From: Luteitalea sp.
GTDB lineage: Bacteria; Acidobacteriota; Vicinamibacteria; Vicinamibacterales; Vicinamibacteraceae
Assembly (NCBI GenBank): GCA_009377605.1
Contig: WHTT01000052.1
Coordinates: 1 to 48,156, forward strand
DNA length: 48,156 nucleotides
Reading direction: 5' to 3'
Position 1 is the first letter of the stretch. Every line of letters begins with the position of its first letter. The notes beneath the pieces were generated by a model. It saw only the letters and a list, made by a program, of their open reading frames with translations, ran no database searches and was not told where the DNA came from. This document shows positions 33,125 to 37,988 of this stretch, one piece after another. Both the position numbers and the translations under genes were made by a program.

Positions 33125-33595
33125 ATGAAGTCCCAGTTGGTCAAGCGGTTCGAAGAGGAGGTCCAAGCACTCGAGCGGGAACTCAAGCGAGACCTGCCGC
33201 AAGAAATCAAGCGGGCACGCGAGCTGGGAGATCTTCGCGAGAATGCGGAGTACCAGGCCGCCAAAGAGCGGCAGAGCCTGGTTCAAGCGCGTATTTCAAT
33301 GCTCCAGAAGCGCCTCTCCGAGCTCGCGATGCTGAACCTCGACAAGATTCCGCGGGACCGCGTGGCCTTCGGCTCGACGGTGCACGTGCGCGAGGCGGAC
33401 GGCACCGCACAAGTGTATACGCTCGTCATGCCCGAGGACGCGGACGCCGAGCGTGGCCTCGTCTCGACTGCTTCGCCCATCGGTCGAGCGCTGGTTGGGA
33501 AAGAGGAGGGCGACGAGGTCCGTGTACCCACGCCCAATGGCCAGCGGCTCTTCGAGCTCGTCAAGCTCGTCACGATCTACGACGGTAGCGAGTAG
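33125..33595 (+). CDS. greA: Transcript cleavage factor GreA-type
   Basis: Protein of 156 residues that enters the RNA polymerase secondary channel and stimulates cleavage of backtracked RNA. The N-terminal coiled coil (residues 1-75) carries the acidic tip motif GDLRENAEYQAAKERQ. The C-terminal FKBP-like domain contains VAFGSTVHV, TLVMPEDADAERGLVS and SPIGRALVGKEEGDEVRV. Length is normal. ATG 33125 has GAAGG 5 nt upstream. The pseudo-patatin gene follows at once. Confidence 0.95.
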   Translation: MKSQLVKRFEEEVQALERELKRDLPQEIKRARELGDLRENAEYQAAKERQSLVQARISMLQKRLSELAMLNLDKIPRDRVAFGSTVHVREADGTAQVYTLVMPEDADAERGLVSTASPIGRALVGKEEGDEVRVPTPNGQRLFELVKLVTIYDGSE

Positions 33596-33623
33596 CGCAG
33601 GTGAGTCGCGGCTGCGGCCACCG

Positions 33624-35048
33624 GTGTCATACTCGCCACGCCTGCGCACCGCGGTCGTGTTGACCGGTACGGGCACGGCAGGCGCGTACCACGCCGGCGT
33701 GTTGAAGGCACTCACCGAAGCAGGCGTCAAGATCGACATCGCCGCAGGGCGGGGCATCGGGGCAGCCGGTGCGATGCTGGCGGCGGTGGATGCCGGCAGC
33801 CGCCTGTGGGATCTCGACGGTCTCTGGGGACTCCCAGGCATCACCACACTATATCGCTGGAGACGAATGTGGGGCCTTGCTGGCTGGGCGCTGCTCGTGG
33901 CGTTTGGCGCGCTGGCGTTGCCGGTCGCCCTCCTCGTTCTCGGAGCGCTGCTCTACCCGATTGCACTCATCCTTCAGATACTCCAGGTCGACGGAAACGG
34001 GGTCGTCGCGCGGTGGTTCGTCGAGCTGCTCGCCACCAGCTTTCGGCGGGATCTCTTCGTCACCTACATTCCGCGCCTTGCGGTTCTGTCCCTGCTCGCG
34101 GCGCTGTTGGCGCTCGCCTGGGAGTGGCTGTACATCCACCTCGGTCGGCGGGCTCGGCGGCGCAGTCGGGGGCAGCCTTGGTGGCTGGCGCTTGGCGCGC
34201 CACTCGACGTCTCCCGGGCGCGCGCGCGCGTCGTCGCGAGCTTCTGGCAGTTCGTGCGTGGGGCCGCGGCGGTTGCGCAGCCCGGCCGCCGCGAGATCAG
34301 TCGGCGCTATTCGGAGCTGCTGCTCGAAGGCCTTGGTCAGCCAGGCTCGCGAGAGCTGATCGTCACCTGCCACGATCTCGATACCCATCGCGATCTCATT
34401 TTTGCTCTGCTGCAAGAGCCACATCGTCGTCGCTTCTTTCGAGAGGACGAGGCTGGCTTGGCGGGCAGGGCCGGCGAGGTTGTCGATCTTGCCGGCATCG
34501 GACGCGACCACGTGTTCGACGCGGTTGCCGGGGCGCTGGTCGTGCCGATGATCGCCGAGCCGCATCTGTTGACCTTCGCGCCGGAGAGCGTCTGGCGCGG
34601 AGAGCCCCACCGACTCACGGACCGTCCCGGTGGGCTGGTGCGCCTGCTCGAGGAGGTGTCGGCCGCCGGGGCAGAACAGGTGATTCTCGTGTCGGCGGCG
34701 CCGCCGCTCGAGCAGCCGCACCAACTGGCGTCGCGTCGAGTCCATCCGCGGGCATGGGCCGGCGAGTACCTCGCGTCGGTCGAGGCGGCGGCAGTTCGTG
34801 ATGCCACGACTGCGCTGTTCGATCGCTTTTCGGCGCTGTTCCACGTTCAACCTGCACACAACCCGCTGGGGCCCTTCGACTTCGGCGGGGTTTACGATGA
34901 GCGCTCGGATCGCCGTCACACGCTGCACGAGCTGATGCAGCGCGGGTACGAAGATGCGTACCGGCAGTTCATCGTGCCGGTCGTGGGCAATACCCAGGAG
35001 CTCCGAGCGGAGTTGTGGAAGCTGCGGCAAGAGGGAGGTTCGAGGTAG
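33624..35048 (+). CDS. Membrane-anchored patatin-like protein lacking the catalytic serine
   Basis: Protein of about 474 residues from GTG 33624 (open frame continues upstream inside greA). Residues 10-50 match the patatin phospholipase start: an oxyanion loop LTGTGTAGAYHAGVLKAL, then the nucleophile elbow. The usual GxSxG reads GRGIG (42-46), so Ser is Gly44. An integral-membrane insert follows: spans about 84-120 (likely a hairpin) and 151-171. The later half keeps patatin features, including FDFGGVYDERSD near the end where active enzymes have Asp-Gly-Gly. Without Ser it should not hydrolyse lipids in the usual way; it may bind lipid or act as a scaffold. The stop codon and last residues (GGSR) are encoded by repeat DNA. 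Confidence 0.6.
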   Translation: MSYSPRLRTAVVLTGTGTAGAYHAGVLKALTEAGVKIDIAAGRGIGAAGAMLAAVDAGSRLWDLDGLWGLPGITTLYRWRRMWGLAGWALLVAFGALALPVALLVLGALLYPIALILQILQVDGNGVVARWFVELLATSFRRDLFVTYIPRLAVLSLLAALLALAWEWLYIHLGRRARRRSRGQPWWLALGAPLDVSRARARVVASFWQFVRGAAAVAQPGRREISRRYSELLLEGLGQPGSRELIVTCHDLDTHRDLIFALLQEPHRRRFFREDEAGLAGRAGEVVDLAGIGRDHVFDAVAGALVVPMIAEPHLLTFAPESVWRGEPHRLTDRPGGLVRLLEEVSAAGAEQVILVSAAPPLEQPHQLASRRVHPRAWAGEYLASVEAAAVRDATTALFDRFSALFHVQPAHNPLGPFDFGGVYDERSDRRHTLHELMQRGYEDAYRQFIVPVVGNTQELRAELWKLRQEGGSR

Positions 35049-35215
35049 GAGGTAGGAGGTTCGAGGTTCGAGGTTCGAGGTAGGAGGTTCGAGGTTGGGG
35101 GCAGGTCAGAGGATTGGGGTAGCGGCCGGGGCTTCGGGTAGGAGTTCGAGAGGTGCGGGCAGGTCGCAGCTTAGAGGTTGGGGCTGTGAGGGAGCGGCAG
35201 GTTGGGGACGGGGTA
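35036..35215. repeat. G-rich tandem array (AGGAGGTTCG units) after the pseudo-patatin gene
   Basis: Units GAGGTAGGAG and GAGGTTCGAG alternate in tandem from 35036 to about 35095, then decay into GGTTGGGG-type repeats to about 35215. The first units encode the end and TAG stop of the upstream gene. No clear inverted partner is present. The purine-rich strand could form unusual structures. Confidence 0.75.
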
Positions 35216-35264
35216 GAGGCGTCCGGTGGCACGCTGATTGCTCTATTGATCGACATGCTGAGCA

Positions 35265-35479
35265 CCCAGCGCCCAAATCGTCAGAATCGTCTCGGGTGAA
35301 CAGGCGACCCTGGAGGACCTGGGAGCAAGAACGGCACGTTTCAGGGCACTGACAGGGTCACGGATCCGGTGCCCTTGGCCGACGGCGAGCGCCTCAAGCT
35401 GGGTTCCGTCTGGCTCACCTACCGCGCCTTACCCGTCACACAGGAGACCAGGACGGTCCGAGGCACGCCGCTTCTGTGA
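35265..35479 (+). pseudogene. FHA-domain gene remnant with a frameshift
   Basis: One frame reads IVRIVSGEQATLEDLG (about 35277-35324). After a shift of one base the text continues SKNGTFQGTDRVTDPVPLADG and ERLKLGSVWLTYRALP, ending at TGA 35477-35479. Together this is the second half of a forkhead-associated domain (LeDLGSKNGTF...PVpLaDGDrlkLGsv), a phosphothreonine-binding module. A single missing base within LGS-KNG explains the break. Its 5' part is gone, replaced by the G-rich array. Acidobacterial genes ending this way usually encode winged-helix regulators, but nothing of that remains. Confidence 0.65.
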
Positions 35480-35546
35480 GCCACAGCAGAGCCCGCCGCC
35501 CGTCCGACTCACCGGCCACAGCCGCAGGGACCAGAGATGTCTTGCG

Positions 35547-36104
35547 TCAGCGCACCAGACCCCGCCTGATCGCAAGCGCAACGGCCTCTGACTTCGAGTG
35601 GACGAGGAGCTTTCGATAGACGTGCATGATGTGAAAGCGGATGGTCTCGATGCTCAGGTCGAGCTCCGCCGCCGCGGTTTTGTAGCTATGCCCTTCAGTG
35701 AGTAGCTGGAGCACTTGCCTCTCGCGCGGCGTGAGCGCGCTGTCACTTGCCGGCATCGGCGCCGTGCGAGGGAGCAGCCCGACCTCAGCCGACGCTGGCG
35801 CACCGCTGTGATCACTCTCCTGGAGCGTGTCGACGGGCCGTGGTGGCGGCGTGTCTTTTCGCAAATAGCCTGTCACATAGCCGTTGAAGGAGCGCGTGCT
35901 GTCGTCGGGCAACGCCACGCTCACGGTGACGCGCTGGCCGAGAATCTCGTCGAAGTCGATGTCACGCGTGCTCAGCAAGTCGAGCTGATACTCGAGCCGT
36001 CGCCTTTTCTCGTCGCGCGCGTGCGTGCTATCGAGCAGCGGCACATCGCCACCGGGTGGTCTGGTGATATCCATCCCGCTGCGCATTTCCATTGCTTCAG
36101 GCAT
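35547..36104 (-). CDS. Chimeric protein: VgrG N-terminal segment fused to a LuxR-type HTH
   Basis: Protein of 185 residues from ATG 36104, with GGAG about 8 nt upstream. Residues 10-80 match the start of type VI secretion spike proteins (VgrG): GGDVPLLDSTHAR, then RLEYQLDLLSTRDIDFDEIL, GQRVTVSVALPDD and RSFNGYVTGY. The match stops exactly after GYVTGY. A Pro/Ser-rich linker follows (81-122). Residues 123-185 are a complete GerE/LuxR helix-turn-helix: LTPRERQVLQLLTEGHSYKT, IETIRFHIMHVYRKL, VHSKSEAVALAIRRG. No receiver or autoinducer domain is present. It lies between an FHA remnant and a propeller remnant. It may be a regulator made by gene fusion; target and signal are unknown. Confidence 0.7.
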   Translation of the reverse strand: MPEAMEMRSGMDITRPPGGDVPLLDSTHARDEKRRRLEYQLDLLSTRDIDFDEILGQRVTVSVALPDDSTRSFNGYVTGYLRKDTPPPRPVDTLQESDHSGAPASAEVGLLPRTAPMPASDSALTPRERQVLQLLTEGHSYKTAAAELDLSIETIRFHIMHVYRKLLVHSKSEAVALAIRRGLVR

Positions 36105-36429
36105 AGCGTTTCTCCAAACATCCGTCGAGCATTTGCGGTCGTGAGCGAGTCCTTGGCCCACTGCCGTGGCCCGCTCAACGTGTCGATCCCGAATAGGGTG
36201 GCTCGACGCGTCTCTGGAAGTCTTGGGAGTTCCATGGGAAAACGCTTGGATTCTTCTGGGGTGCGGAATCGTGCCCGCGTCTGTCGGGCGTCACAATGGC
36301 TGAGCTGTAGCGGCGGGCGCGCTGGGTGGCGCATGGTACCATTTCCGTTCGTGCAGTCTGGGGGAGGCCGTTTCGAGAAGGCTCGTGAGACATGCAGGAT
36401 AGGCCCGACGCCGAAAGGGCAGCACACGG
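36105..36429. other. Non-coding stretch upstream of the chimeric regulator
   Basis: About 325 nt with no convincing gene on either strand. It must contain the promoter of the minus-strand chimera, but no clear -10/-35 pair is seen. Base composition is a little lower in GC than the flanks. Confidence 0.4.
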
Positions 36430-36561
36430 GACGGCGGGTACGACCTGTTCGCCATGAACCGCAACGGCAGCACCGTCCGTAACCTGGGCGCCGGGGCCGA
36501 CCCGGCCTGGCAGCCAAGCCCGGCGTTGGTGGGCCGGCGTCGGTGGGGCCCCAGTGACTAA
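36430..36561 (+). pseudogene. C-terminal fragment of a TolB/PD40-type propeller protein
   Basis: The frame from about 36439 reads YDLFAMNRNGSTVRNLGAG and then ADPAWQPSPALVG, ending at TAA 36559-36561. The pattern (Y)DLFxMNxNGSxxRxLxxGADPAWxP is one blade of a WD40-like (PD40/TolB) beta-propeller. No start or earlier blades remain. It overlaps the convergent DHH gene by a few bases. Confidence 0.55.
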
Positions 36562-37988
36562 CCTCGGGCCTGCAGGGCGGCGACTTCCTTTGGCTTGCCG
36601 TTCTGTTCGTGCAGGAAGCTGTGAGTGAGGTCGCTCAGGCGGCGTGCGATCTCTTCCGGCGTTCGGGCGCCATGCTTCTCGACGAAGGCCTCGAACGGCA
36701 CCACTGCCTTGGCCAGTGATCGATGCCCGCCTGCGCTGCCTAGGTCTGCAAAGAAGCGCTTGACGAACTCACCGGCATTGCGCGCGTACCCGAGATTGCG
36801 CAGCGAAACAACTAATTTGTCGCCCACGATCCCGGCGATGGCGGCCCAGCGCGTGTCTTCGAGCTCGAGGAAGAAGTCGGCCGCGTAGGTGATGAGATCC
36901 TCGCGCGGCGCCTCGCCGAGGCAGCCGCAAAAGACTTGGTCCTCGTGGACGCTGGCCGCGAGCGCCCGCATGACGTACTCCAACCGCTCGTGCGTGATCT
37001 CCGCGCCTTCCATCTTGCGGATGAGGGCTGGGTCCGCCAACGGGTAGAGATTGGTGAAAGCTTCGAGATCCTGCCGGTTCGTATGGCGCGCGAAGAAGAG
37101 GGTGTCAGACTTGATGGCGTACAACATCGCCGTCGCCGTACGCTCCGAGACATCGAGATCGACGGCGCGCATGTGCTCCCACAGGATCGTGCTCGTCGAG
37201 CCGTAGTCTGGACGGATGTCCTTGAAGACCGCGTTGTAGCCGGTCTGCTCTGGGTGGTGATCGATGACGAGGTCCACGCGGTTGAGGCCATCGAAATAGT
37301 GCGGCTGCACGTCCACCGTCGCGATACGATCGTAGTGCTCGAAGTCGGCGGGCGTGACCCCGTCCACCGGGATGTCGAGCAGGCGTGCCATCCGTAGGTT
37401 CTCGGGGCGGGTCATGGGCTGCACCGCGCCGATGGTGCAGGTGGCGCGGCGGCGACGCAGGATGTAGCGAAGTGTCAGGCCGCTGGCGAGGGCATCCGGG
37501 TCGGGATCGTTGTGGAGGAGAACGAGCACGCGGTCCGCATCCTCGAAGTAACGCTGGTACTGCTGAACGCGCGCGCGTGTCATGGACCGGCTCAGCTCTG
37601 CAATGAGGGTCGGCTCGGTGAGCTCGGCGAGCGTGAACTGCGTGACCTCCGGGTACCGCTGTCGAACGTCGTCGGCGGCGCGTGTCGACGCGCCGGTGGA
37701 GAGGACATAGGTGAGGGAGCCCCCGGCGTCGCGGACCGCCTCGATCAATCGCCTCAAGCTCCGCCGCCGGTGGTCCTCGACGATCACACAGGTCTGCGGA
37801 GAGAGGTCCGCCTTTAGATAGGTGTCGACTCGACAACAGTCTGCGGCGGTCACGCGGATCCCGGCGTCGTGTAAGCGACGAGCCAGCGCGCGATTTTCAA
37901 CGAGGAAGTCGACGTCGAAGGTTGAGCTGAGAATCCGGTCGAGCGTCCGGACCATCAGCTCGGTCTGACAAATGGCGAGACACTTCAT
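36558..37988 (-). CDS. DHH-family phosphoesterase with N-terminal TrkA-N-like domain
   Basis: Protein of 476 residues. Residues 1-140 resemble an RCK/TrkA-N fold but lack the glycine loop. The DHH domain starts about residue 150: LLHNDPDPDALASG (motif I), then Asp in IATVDVQPHY, the name-giving IDHHPEQTGY, and the fourth motif around SDTLFFAR. The DHHA1 domain ends in SAGGHRSLAKA. Such enzymes hydrolyse nanoRNA, pAp or cyclic dinucleotides with Mn2+; the N-terminal domain suggests ligand control. It resembles NrnA/GdpP-type proteins without membrane spans. A perfect TATAAT and a leader hairpin lie upstream. Confidence 0.85.
   Translation of the reverse strand: MKCLAICQTELMVRTLDRILSSTFDVDFLVENRALARRLHDAGIRVTAADCCRVDTYLKADLSPQTCVIVEDHRRRSLRRLIEAVRDAGGSLTYVLSTGASTRAADDVRQRYPEVTQFTLAELTEPTLIAELSRSMTRARVQQYQRYFEDADRVLVLLHNDPDPDALASGLTLRYILRRRRATCTIGAVQPMTRPENLRMARLLDIPVDGVTPADFEHYDRIATVDVQPHYFDGLNRVDLVIDHHPEQTGYNAVFKDIRPDYGSTSTILWEHMRAVDLDVSERTATAMLYAIKSDTLFFARHTNRQDLEAFTNLYPLADPALIRKMEGAEITHERLEYVMRALAASVHEDQVFCGCLGEAPREDLITYAADFFLELEDTRWAAIAGIVGDKLVVSLRNLGYARNAGEFVKRFFADLGSAGGHRSLAKAVVPFEAFVEKHGARTPEEIARRLSDLTHSFLHEQNGKPKEVAALQARG

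What the first reader, a model, noticed from the sequence alone, without database searches (positions are those of the whole stretch)
35547..36104. VgrG N-terminal segment fused to a LuxR-type DNA-binding domain
Seen: residues 10-80 carry the opening of a type VI spike protein (EYQLDLLS, ILGQRVTVSVALPDD, SFNGYVTGY), then a Pro-rich linker, then a complete GerE/LuxR HTH (LTPRERQVLQLL to AIRRGLVR). A single strong ribosome site precedes the fused frame. Known: VgrG N-termini form the gp27-like base of the spike; LuxR HTHs bind DNA as dimers. Inference: a domain fusion has turned a secretion-structure module into an oligomerisation or sensing part of a regulator, possibly tying T6SS assembly state to transcription. 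I know of no described family with this layout.
Basis: partly seen in the sequence, partly recalled or inferred. Interest (0 to 1): 0.75.

Follow-up and report, generated by a model that had tools for sequence, protein, structure and literature searches.

The report
Chimeric spike-fragment and DNA-binding gene
In one bacterium the start of a secretion-spike gene has been joined to the tail of a two-component response-regulator gene, and the pattern of mutations suggests that the cell keeps the DNA-binding tail while the spike piece is mostly just a borrowed front end.

Summary
The fused frame is real: 185 codons on the minus strand, 36104-35547. Residues 1-78 come from a vgrG (79% DNA identity to vgrG genes of this genome and a congener). 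Residues 79-185 come from a NarL/FixJ-type response regulator (76% DNA identity to one elsewhere in this genome). The join is sharp (35872/35870) and falls inside the receiver domain; the 'Pro-rich linker' is the decayed receiver tail. Among the 7 family genomes held (this one included) only this one has the fusion. In 5 relatives a PLP-enzyme gene occupies the site; here about 1.5 kb of fragments and repeats replaces it.

The VgrG piece is ~15% of the hub domain (profile positions 7-51 of 305). On the chimera's own branch it shows relaxed constraint, as does the receiver tail, while the GerE domain stays conserved (codon ML, tail versus GerE, p 5e-6 to 8e-6; simpler tests p about 0.013). Best reading: a receiver-less, constitutive LuxR-type regulator or competitor of its parent, with the vgrG start as a passive leader. 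The proposed T6SS-sensing module is not supported. Main rival: a decaying chimera in a scrap region. Lineage-specific, modest interest.

The parts
35547..36104 (-). Chimeric gene, 185 codons, ATG at 36104, stop at 35549-35547
   Evidence: unbroken frame; from residue 7 on, alignment to the closest parents shows only in-frame length differences (one codon in the VgrG part, five codons in the linker)
35871..36104 (-). VgrG-derived segment, codons 1-78 (fragment of the gp27-like hub domain)
   Evidence: Pfam GPD 36.2 bits; 79% DNA identity to G001:C11 vgrG from 36130 to 35872 and to G000:C156 vgrG
36105..36130 (-). Ribosome-site region carried over with the vgrG start; no homology to the vgrG further upstream
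   Evidence: match to the G001 vgrG begins at 36130
35868..35872 (-). Recombination junction: vgrG identity ends at GTGAC, response-regulator identity starts at GGCTA
   Evidence: ungapped codon display
35745..35870 (-). Remnant of receiver-domain tail plus interdomain linker (residues 79-120), with a 5-codon deletion after residue 109
   Evidence: relaxed on the chimera branch
35550..35744 (-). GerE/LuxR-type helix-turn-helix (residues 121-185; Pfam 123-178)
   Evidence: 61 bits; conserved on the chimera branch; modelled as four helices, pLDDT blocks 61-85 in residues 121-170; 69-aa tail matches NarL, GerE, VraR and FixJ chains
35049..36557 (.). Stretch that replaces a PLP-enzyme gene present at this site in 5 of 5 relatives with the synteny (borders approximate)
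35262..35476 (+). FHA-domain-like 3' remnant spread over two frames
   Evidence: PF00498 in frame 35300-35476, 19 bits, just under the cut-off of 20.7, E 0.002; the upstream frame got no match and is assigned by eye

Best explanation
A lineage-specific chimeric gene. An illegitimate join linked the ribosome site, start codon and first ~78 codons of a vgrG to the last ~107 codons of a NarL/FixJ-type response-regulator gene, cutting inside the receiver domain. The product has no phosphorylatable receiver (the phospho-acceptor region and most of the domain are absent) but keeps an intact LuxR-type helix-turn-helix whose recognition region is nearly identical to that of the regulator encoded at G000:C1. 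It most likely works as a signal-independent DNA-binding protein: it occupies the parent regulator's sites constitutively, as a repressor, competitor or low-level activator. The VgrG piece is a mostly passive leader. Shown: both parts, the junction, the loss of the receiver, constraint kept on the HTH but relaxed on the receiver tail. Inferred: expression, DNA binding, same target sites, constitutive action.
For: Parent assignment by DNA and protein; sharp junction. On the chimera branch: receiver tail+linker 21.5 non: 7.5 syn, GerE 7 non: 10 syn, with similar synonymous rates per site (0.22 and 0.20). Codon ML with five taxa: tail omega 0.57-1.16, GerE omega 0.08-0.13, common omega rejected in 3 of 3 topologies (p 5e-6 to 8.4e-6); three-taxon fit with shared times agrees (p 5e-6). 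Simpler tests point the same way but weaker: tail versus GerE codon-label permutation 250 of 20000; VgrG part plus tail versus GerE, Fisher on rounded counts p 0.014. Within the tail the replacements peak at residues 103-114 (10 non, 0 syn), where by position relative to NarL the parent should have the interdomain helix alpha-6 (inference). Precedent: the isolated NarL output domain constitutively represses frdA, and the alpha5-alpha6 loop restrains it (PMC4549865; abstract, passages and section 11 read).
Against: The gene sits among decayed fragments (FHA-like remnant, repeats), as debris would. No promoter-like site in 35040-36600 (the sigma-70 consensus may not apply). GerE omega = 1 is rejected in 2 of 3 topologies only (p 0.34 with the chimera basal), and GerE constraint could partly predate the fusion. 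The VgrG part is not clearly neutral (omega = 1: p 0.013-0.167 by placement, 0.065 in the best-scoring one). No ortholog was found to test retention. In NarL the output domain alone could not activate narG (PMC4549865), so a receiver-less form may do little at some promoters.
Confidence: 0.57

Rival explanations
1. Non-functional chimera: a chance product of fragment recombination in a scrap region, still open because it is young and the genome is G+C-rich; the GerE conservation reflects time before the join.
For: Neighbouring FHA-like remnant spread over two frames and repeats, PLP gene lost; long spurious frames are common here; another lone GerE 3' fragment in G001:C41; fusion not seen in relatives.
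Against: Same synonymous rate but about five-fold lower replacement rate in GerE than in the adjacent receiver tail on the same branch; tail and GerE differ in all 3 ML topologies; in-frame length differences only, from residue 7 on. If GerE had been drifting as long as the tail the two should match.
Confidence: 0.31
2. One reading: the VgrG segment is a folded oligomerisation or T6SS-sensing module that couples spike assembly to transcription.
For: Significant profile match; the core residues 37-79 have few replacements (6 non, 2 syn on the branch); omega of the VgrG part below 1 in the five-taxon point estimates.
Against: Only 45 of 305 hub-profile positions remain; the rest of the hub, the base_V part and the Gp5-type trimer needle present in the own-genome VgrG are missing; raised omega against background; no relative found with the layout.
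Confidence: 0.08
3. Assembly artefact: a misjoin of vgrG and regulator reads.
For: The genome is a 382-contig draft.
Against: The parent copies found are only 76-79% identical at DNA level and on other contigs; both flanks are syntenic with G001 on one contig; the join lies inside diverged, in-frame sequence.
Confidence: 0.04

Closest known systems
NarL/FixJ-type response regulators (Response_reg + GerE)
   Same: GerE domain, receiver tail motif GYLxKDTPP and direct DNA homology to G000:C1:143571-143907
   Different: Receiver domain lost apart from its tail; a vgrG start is in front
Stand-alone GerE-type regulators (GerE, PDB 1fse; PedR model NF052366, 74 positions)
   Same: HTH without receiver or ligand domain; the tail matches 1fse at E 3e-8 and NF052366 weakly (20.5 bits, cut-off 120)
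   Different: Carries ~120 extra N-terminal residues of foreign and decayed origin; arose from a response regulator of this genus
VgrG/TssI spike proteins
   Same: First ~78 codons including the start region
   Different: Lacks most of the hub, the base_V domain and the needle; cannot be a spike
Isolated NarL output-domain constructs (PMC4549865)
   Same: Receiver-less NarL-type HTH that acts without the signal
   Different: Engineered truncations, not natural chimeras

Membership tests
VgrG/TssI spike protein | Complete gp27-like hub domain (GPD, 305 positions) | tested here: not met
   positions 7-51 of 305 only
VgrG/TssI spike protein | base_V (OB-like) domain and Gp5-type trimer needle | tested here: not met
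   no match in the Pfam scan of the 185 aa; both present in the own-genome VgrG
LuxR-type (GerE) DNA-binding protein | Complete GerE HTH over the curated cut-off | tested here: met
   positions 2-57 of 57, 61 bits, cut-off 23.5
LuxR-type (GerE) DNA-binding protein | Binds DNA as a dimer | not testable with these tools
   no experiment; no complex model run
NarL/FixJ response regulator | Receiver domain with phospho-acceptor Asp | tested here: not met
   no Response_reg match in the chimera; the parent has it, 72.4 bits; the alignment keeps only the last part of the domain
Receiver-less GerE-only regulator (works like) | HTH kept under constraint without its receiver | tested here: met
   tail relaxed, GerE constrained on the same branch; but GerE omega = 1 is not rejected in 1 of 3 topologies
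Receiver-less GerE-only regulator (works like) | Expression and constitutive DNA binding | not testable with these tools
   needs experiment

The most novel reading that the evidence does not exclude
A T6SS spike gene's translation start has been captured to make a signal-blind copy of a two-component output domain, and the VgrG-derived leader still contributes something, such as docking to spike or baseplate proteins or setting dose with T6SS expression, so that a regulon became tied to the secretion system through a new gene.
Probability: 0.07. Interest if true: 0.7.

Novelty: new variant of a known kind. Interest (0 to 1): 0.33.

Why it matters
It is a clear case of what looks like a new bacterial regulator born by joining two unrelated genes at a short site, with the two halves then showing different selection. 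It would show how a phosphorylation-dependent regulator can spawn a signal-independent competitor in one step, using another gene's start. It also warns that a VgrG or GPD domain hit in a regulator need not mean a functional link to type VI secretion.

Tried and rejected
Search for the same fusion elsewhere. One genome-contig scan: 35 stretches matched a pattern, 1 encodes a relative, a response-regulator tail at the end of a Planctomycetota MAG contig (52% over residues 68-185). Viral contigs: 10 stretches matched a pattern, none a relative. Plasmids: 189 records match, 3 of them over 80% or more of the query, these three annotated as response regulators; of the 10 rows listed 5 are annotated so, 2 have no gene under the match and 3 lie in unannotated records; 179 rows not seen. 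Relatives: 60 genomes, own included, 51 with a match; the match list was cut by the tool; among the matches listed none but the window's own spans both parts. Family: 7 genomes, own included (E <= 1e-9): only the window's own spans both. Phylum draw of 396 genomes, own included, with the VgrG part alone: 20 of 396 match (19 besides the own); 23 matches, of which one is the chimera, 21 lie in frames of 565 aa or more, and one in a 206-aa frame that runs off its contig end; G001 is not among the genomes that matched there although it has vgrG genes, so it was evidently not drawn. In the own genome, GPD gives 4 matches at E <= 10, only the C156 vgrG and the chimera over the cut-off; GerE gives 16 matches.

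Promoter scan: none. The structure model from the single sequence was poor outside GerE, so no fold search was run. Omega of the VgrG part is unstable in three-taxon fits: 1.0; the profile is flat from about 0.2 to 5 for the same data, and with another vgrG as comparator it gives 0.24 with omega = 1 disfavoured (2d 6.97). The five-taxon fits give 0.29-0.35 in 4 distinct placements (a fifth run was the same unrooted tree). I therefore claim only relaxed constraint. Separate three-taxon fits of the other parts: tail 0.44 (omega = 1: p 0.17), GerE 0.088 (omega = 1: p 0.034). An internal ATG (residue 117, Leu in the two closest regulators) could start a 69-aa GerE-only protein, but I see no ribosome site in the 30 nt before it; left as an option. 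A PD40-like reading of 36403-36561 rests on recall and got no Pfam match.

Papers: seven searches, four of them with VgrG as a term, whose listings showed 20 of 31, 20 of 55, 10 of 41 and 12 of 134 papers. In what was listed I saw no VgrG-GerE fusion. I read only listings, except PMC4549865 (abstract, passages, section 11), PMC5882156 (passages; GerE with 96 different companion domains) and PMC8276238 (passages). This does not prove that none is in print.

Full report
What is there. The finding's coordinates hold an unbroken frame of 185 codons on the minus strand (ATG 36104, stop ending 35547). Pfam finds Phage_GPD at residues 36-79 (36.2 bits, cut-off 30.1) and GerE at residues 123-178 (61 bits, cut-off 23.5). 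The PDB search with residues 1-97 returns four VgrG sequences first (E 1e-4 to 2e-4). Both halves are therefore real.

Where the halves come from. A whole-genome DNA search finds two gene-sized matches besides the locus itself: 79% identity to a vgrG at G000:C156:6107-6339 and 76% identity to a response-regulator gene at G000:C1:143571-143907; this search scored 40 of 103 candidates, and its other 54 matches are all to the repeat tract. The vgrG of the congener G001 (C11) matches from 36130 to 35872 and shares the ribosome-site region and the start MPxxMEMRxxMDIT. The own-genome VgrG has GPD, base_V and Gp5_trimer_C domains; the regulator has Response_reg and GerE. The codon display puts the join between GTGAC of vgrG (ending at 35872) and GGCTA of the regulator (starting at 35870), inside the receiver domain.

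Where it sits. The site lies between a patatin-like gene (33453-35048 +) and a DHH-type gene (36558-37988 -); these two names are my reading of the sequences, no family search was run on them. The flanks are syntenic in G001 (C3) and in G002-G005. In all 5 of these genomes a PLP-enzyme gene (390 aa in G001; name by eye) fills the gap. It is absent from the window, and the nearest own-genome homologues are 45% and 43% identical paralogues. G006 had no match to the DHH protein and was not informative. Here the gap holds the chimera, a GGTTCGAGG-type repeat tract and an FHA-like remnant spread over two frames. So the gene is a newcomer in a rearranged stretch.

Who has it. Among 7 family genomes, own included, only this one has the fusion; the only other genome of the genus held has the two parents apart. 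Wider searches found no second case (details and limits under tried and rejected). Absence elsewhere is bounded by these collections.

Which half is kept. On the chimera's own branch, by parsimony against two comparators, changes are 18 replacement: 5 silent in the VgrG part, 21.5: 7.5 in the receiver tail and linker, and 7: 10 in GerE; silent rates per site in tail and GerE are alike (7.5 of 34.0 and 10 of 49.7). A codon model with five taxa gives the tail omega 0.57-1.16 (background 0.06) and GerE 0.08-0.13 (background 0.05); a common value is rejected in 3 of 3 topologies (p 5e-6 to 8.4e-6). GerE omega = 1 is rejected in two topologies (p 0.0003) but not when the chimera is placed basal (p 0.34). 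Simple tests agree but are weaker: tail versus GerE by codon-label permutation, 250 of 20000; VgrG part plus tail versus GerE by Fisher on rounded counts, p 0.014. The VgrG part has omega 0.29-0.35 against 0.075 background (p 0.002-0.005); omega = 1 gives p 0.013 to 0.167 depending on placement, 0.065 in the best-scoring one, and three-taxon fits are unstable. So constraint is relaxed there, though strict neutrality is not established; its replacements cluster in residues 22-36 (9 of 18). The segment borders were chosen from the domain map, not scanned. The branch may include time before the join.

How it most likely works. Receiver domains of this family can restrain the output domain. For NarL, the isolated output domain represses frdA regardless of nitrate but cannot activate narG, and the alpha5-alpha6 loop restrains it (PMC4549865: abstract, passages, section 11). 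In the chimera the receiver is gone, and the stretch corresponding by position to the alpha5-alpha6 loop and helix alpha-6 has lost five codons and taken 10 replacements and no silent changes in residues 103-114. The recognition region (SIETIRFHIxHVYRKL) differs from that of the G000:C1 regulator at one position in 16; calling it the recognition region is recall. The simplest mechanism is a signal-independent protein that competes at the parent's sites, more likely repressing than activating. That is inference; expression and binding are untested. The vgrG fragment supplied the start and ribosome site; no homology to it upstream of 36130 shows that it brought a promoter.

The inference of a VgrG oligomerisation or sensing module is not supported, though not excluded. 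The most serious rival is a dying chimera in a scrap region. The value lies in a clean, testable example of how a receiver-less regulator may be born.

Noticed in passing
35035-35150 (+): Tract of GGTTCGAGG / GGTAGGAGG-type direct repeats at the end of the patatin-like gene; 54 further matches in the genome besides the locus and the two parents (40 of 103 candidates scored).
   Followed up: partly
35262-35476 (+): FHA-domain-like 3' fragment spread over two frames, next to the chimera; best own-genome relative is 45% identical at G000:C107.
   Followed up: partly
36403-36561 (+): Frame reading GGYDLFAMNRNGSTVRNLGAGADPAWQPSP resembles the end of a PD40/TolB-type propeller protein by recall; no Pfam match and no other copy in G000 or G001 at E <= 0.01.
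   Followed up: partly
L060:7994-9166 (-): PLP-enzyme gene (Cys/Met metabolism type by eye) at this site in 5 of 5 relatives examined but missing in the window's genome.
   Followed up: partly
L029:3107-3247 (-): A lone GerE 3' fragment in G001 without a receiver part, in a 71-aa frame: tails of this regulator family may be scattered in the genus.
   Followed up: partly
35754-35756 (-), codon 117: A Leu codon of the two closest regulators is ATG in the chimera just before GerE, a possible internal start for a 69-aa HTH-only protein; no ribosome site seen.
   Followed up: no
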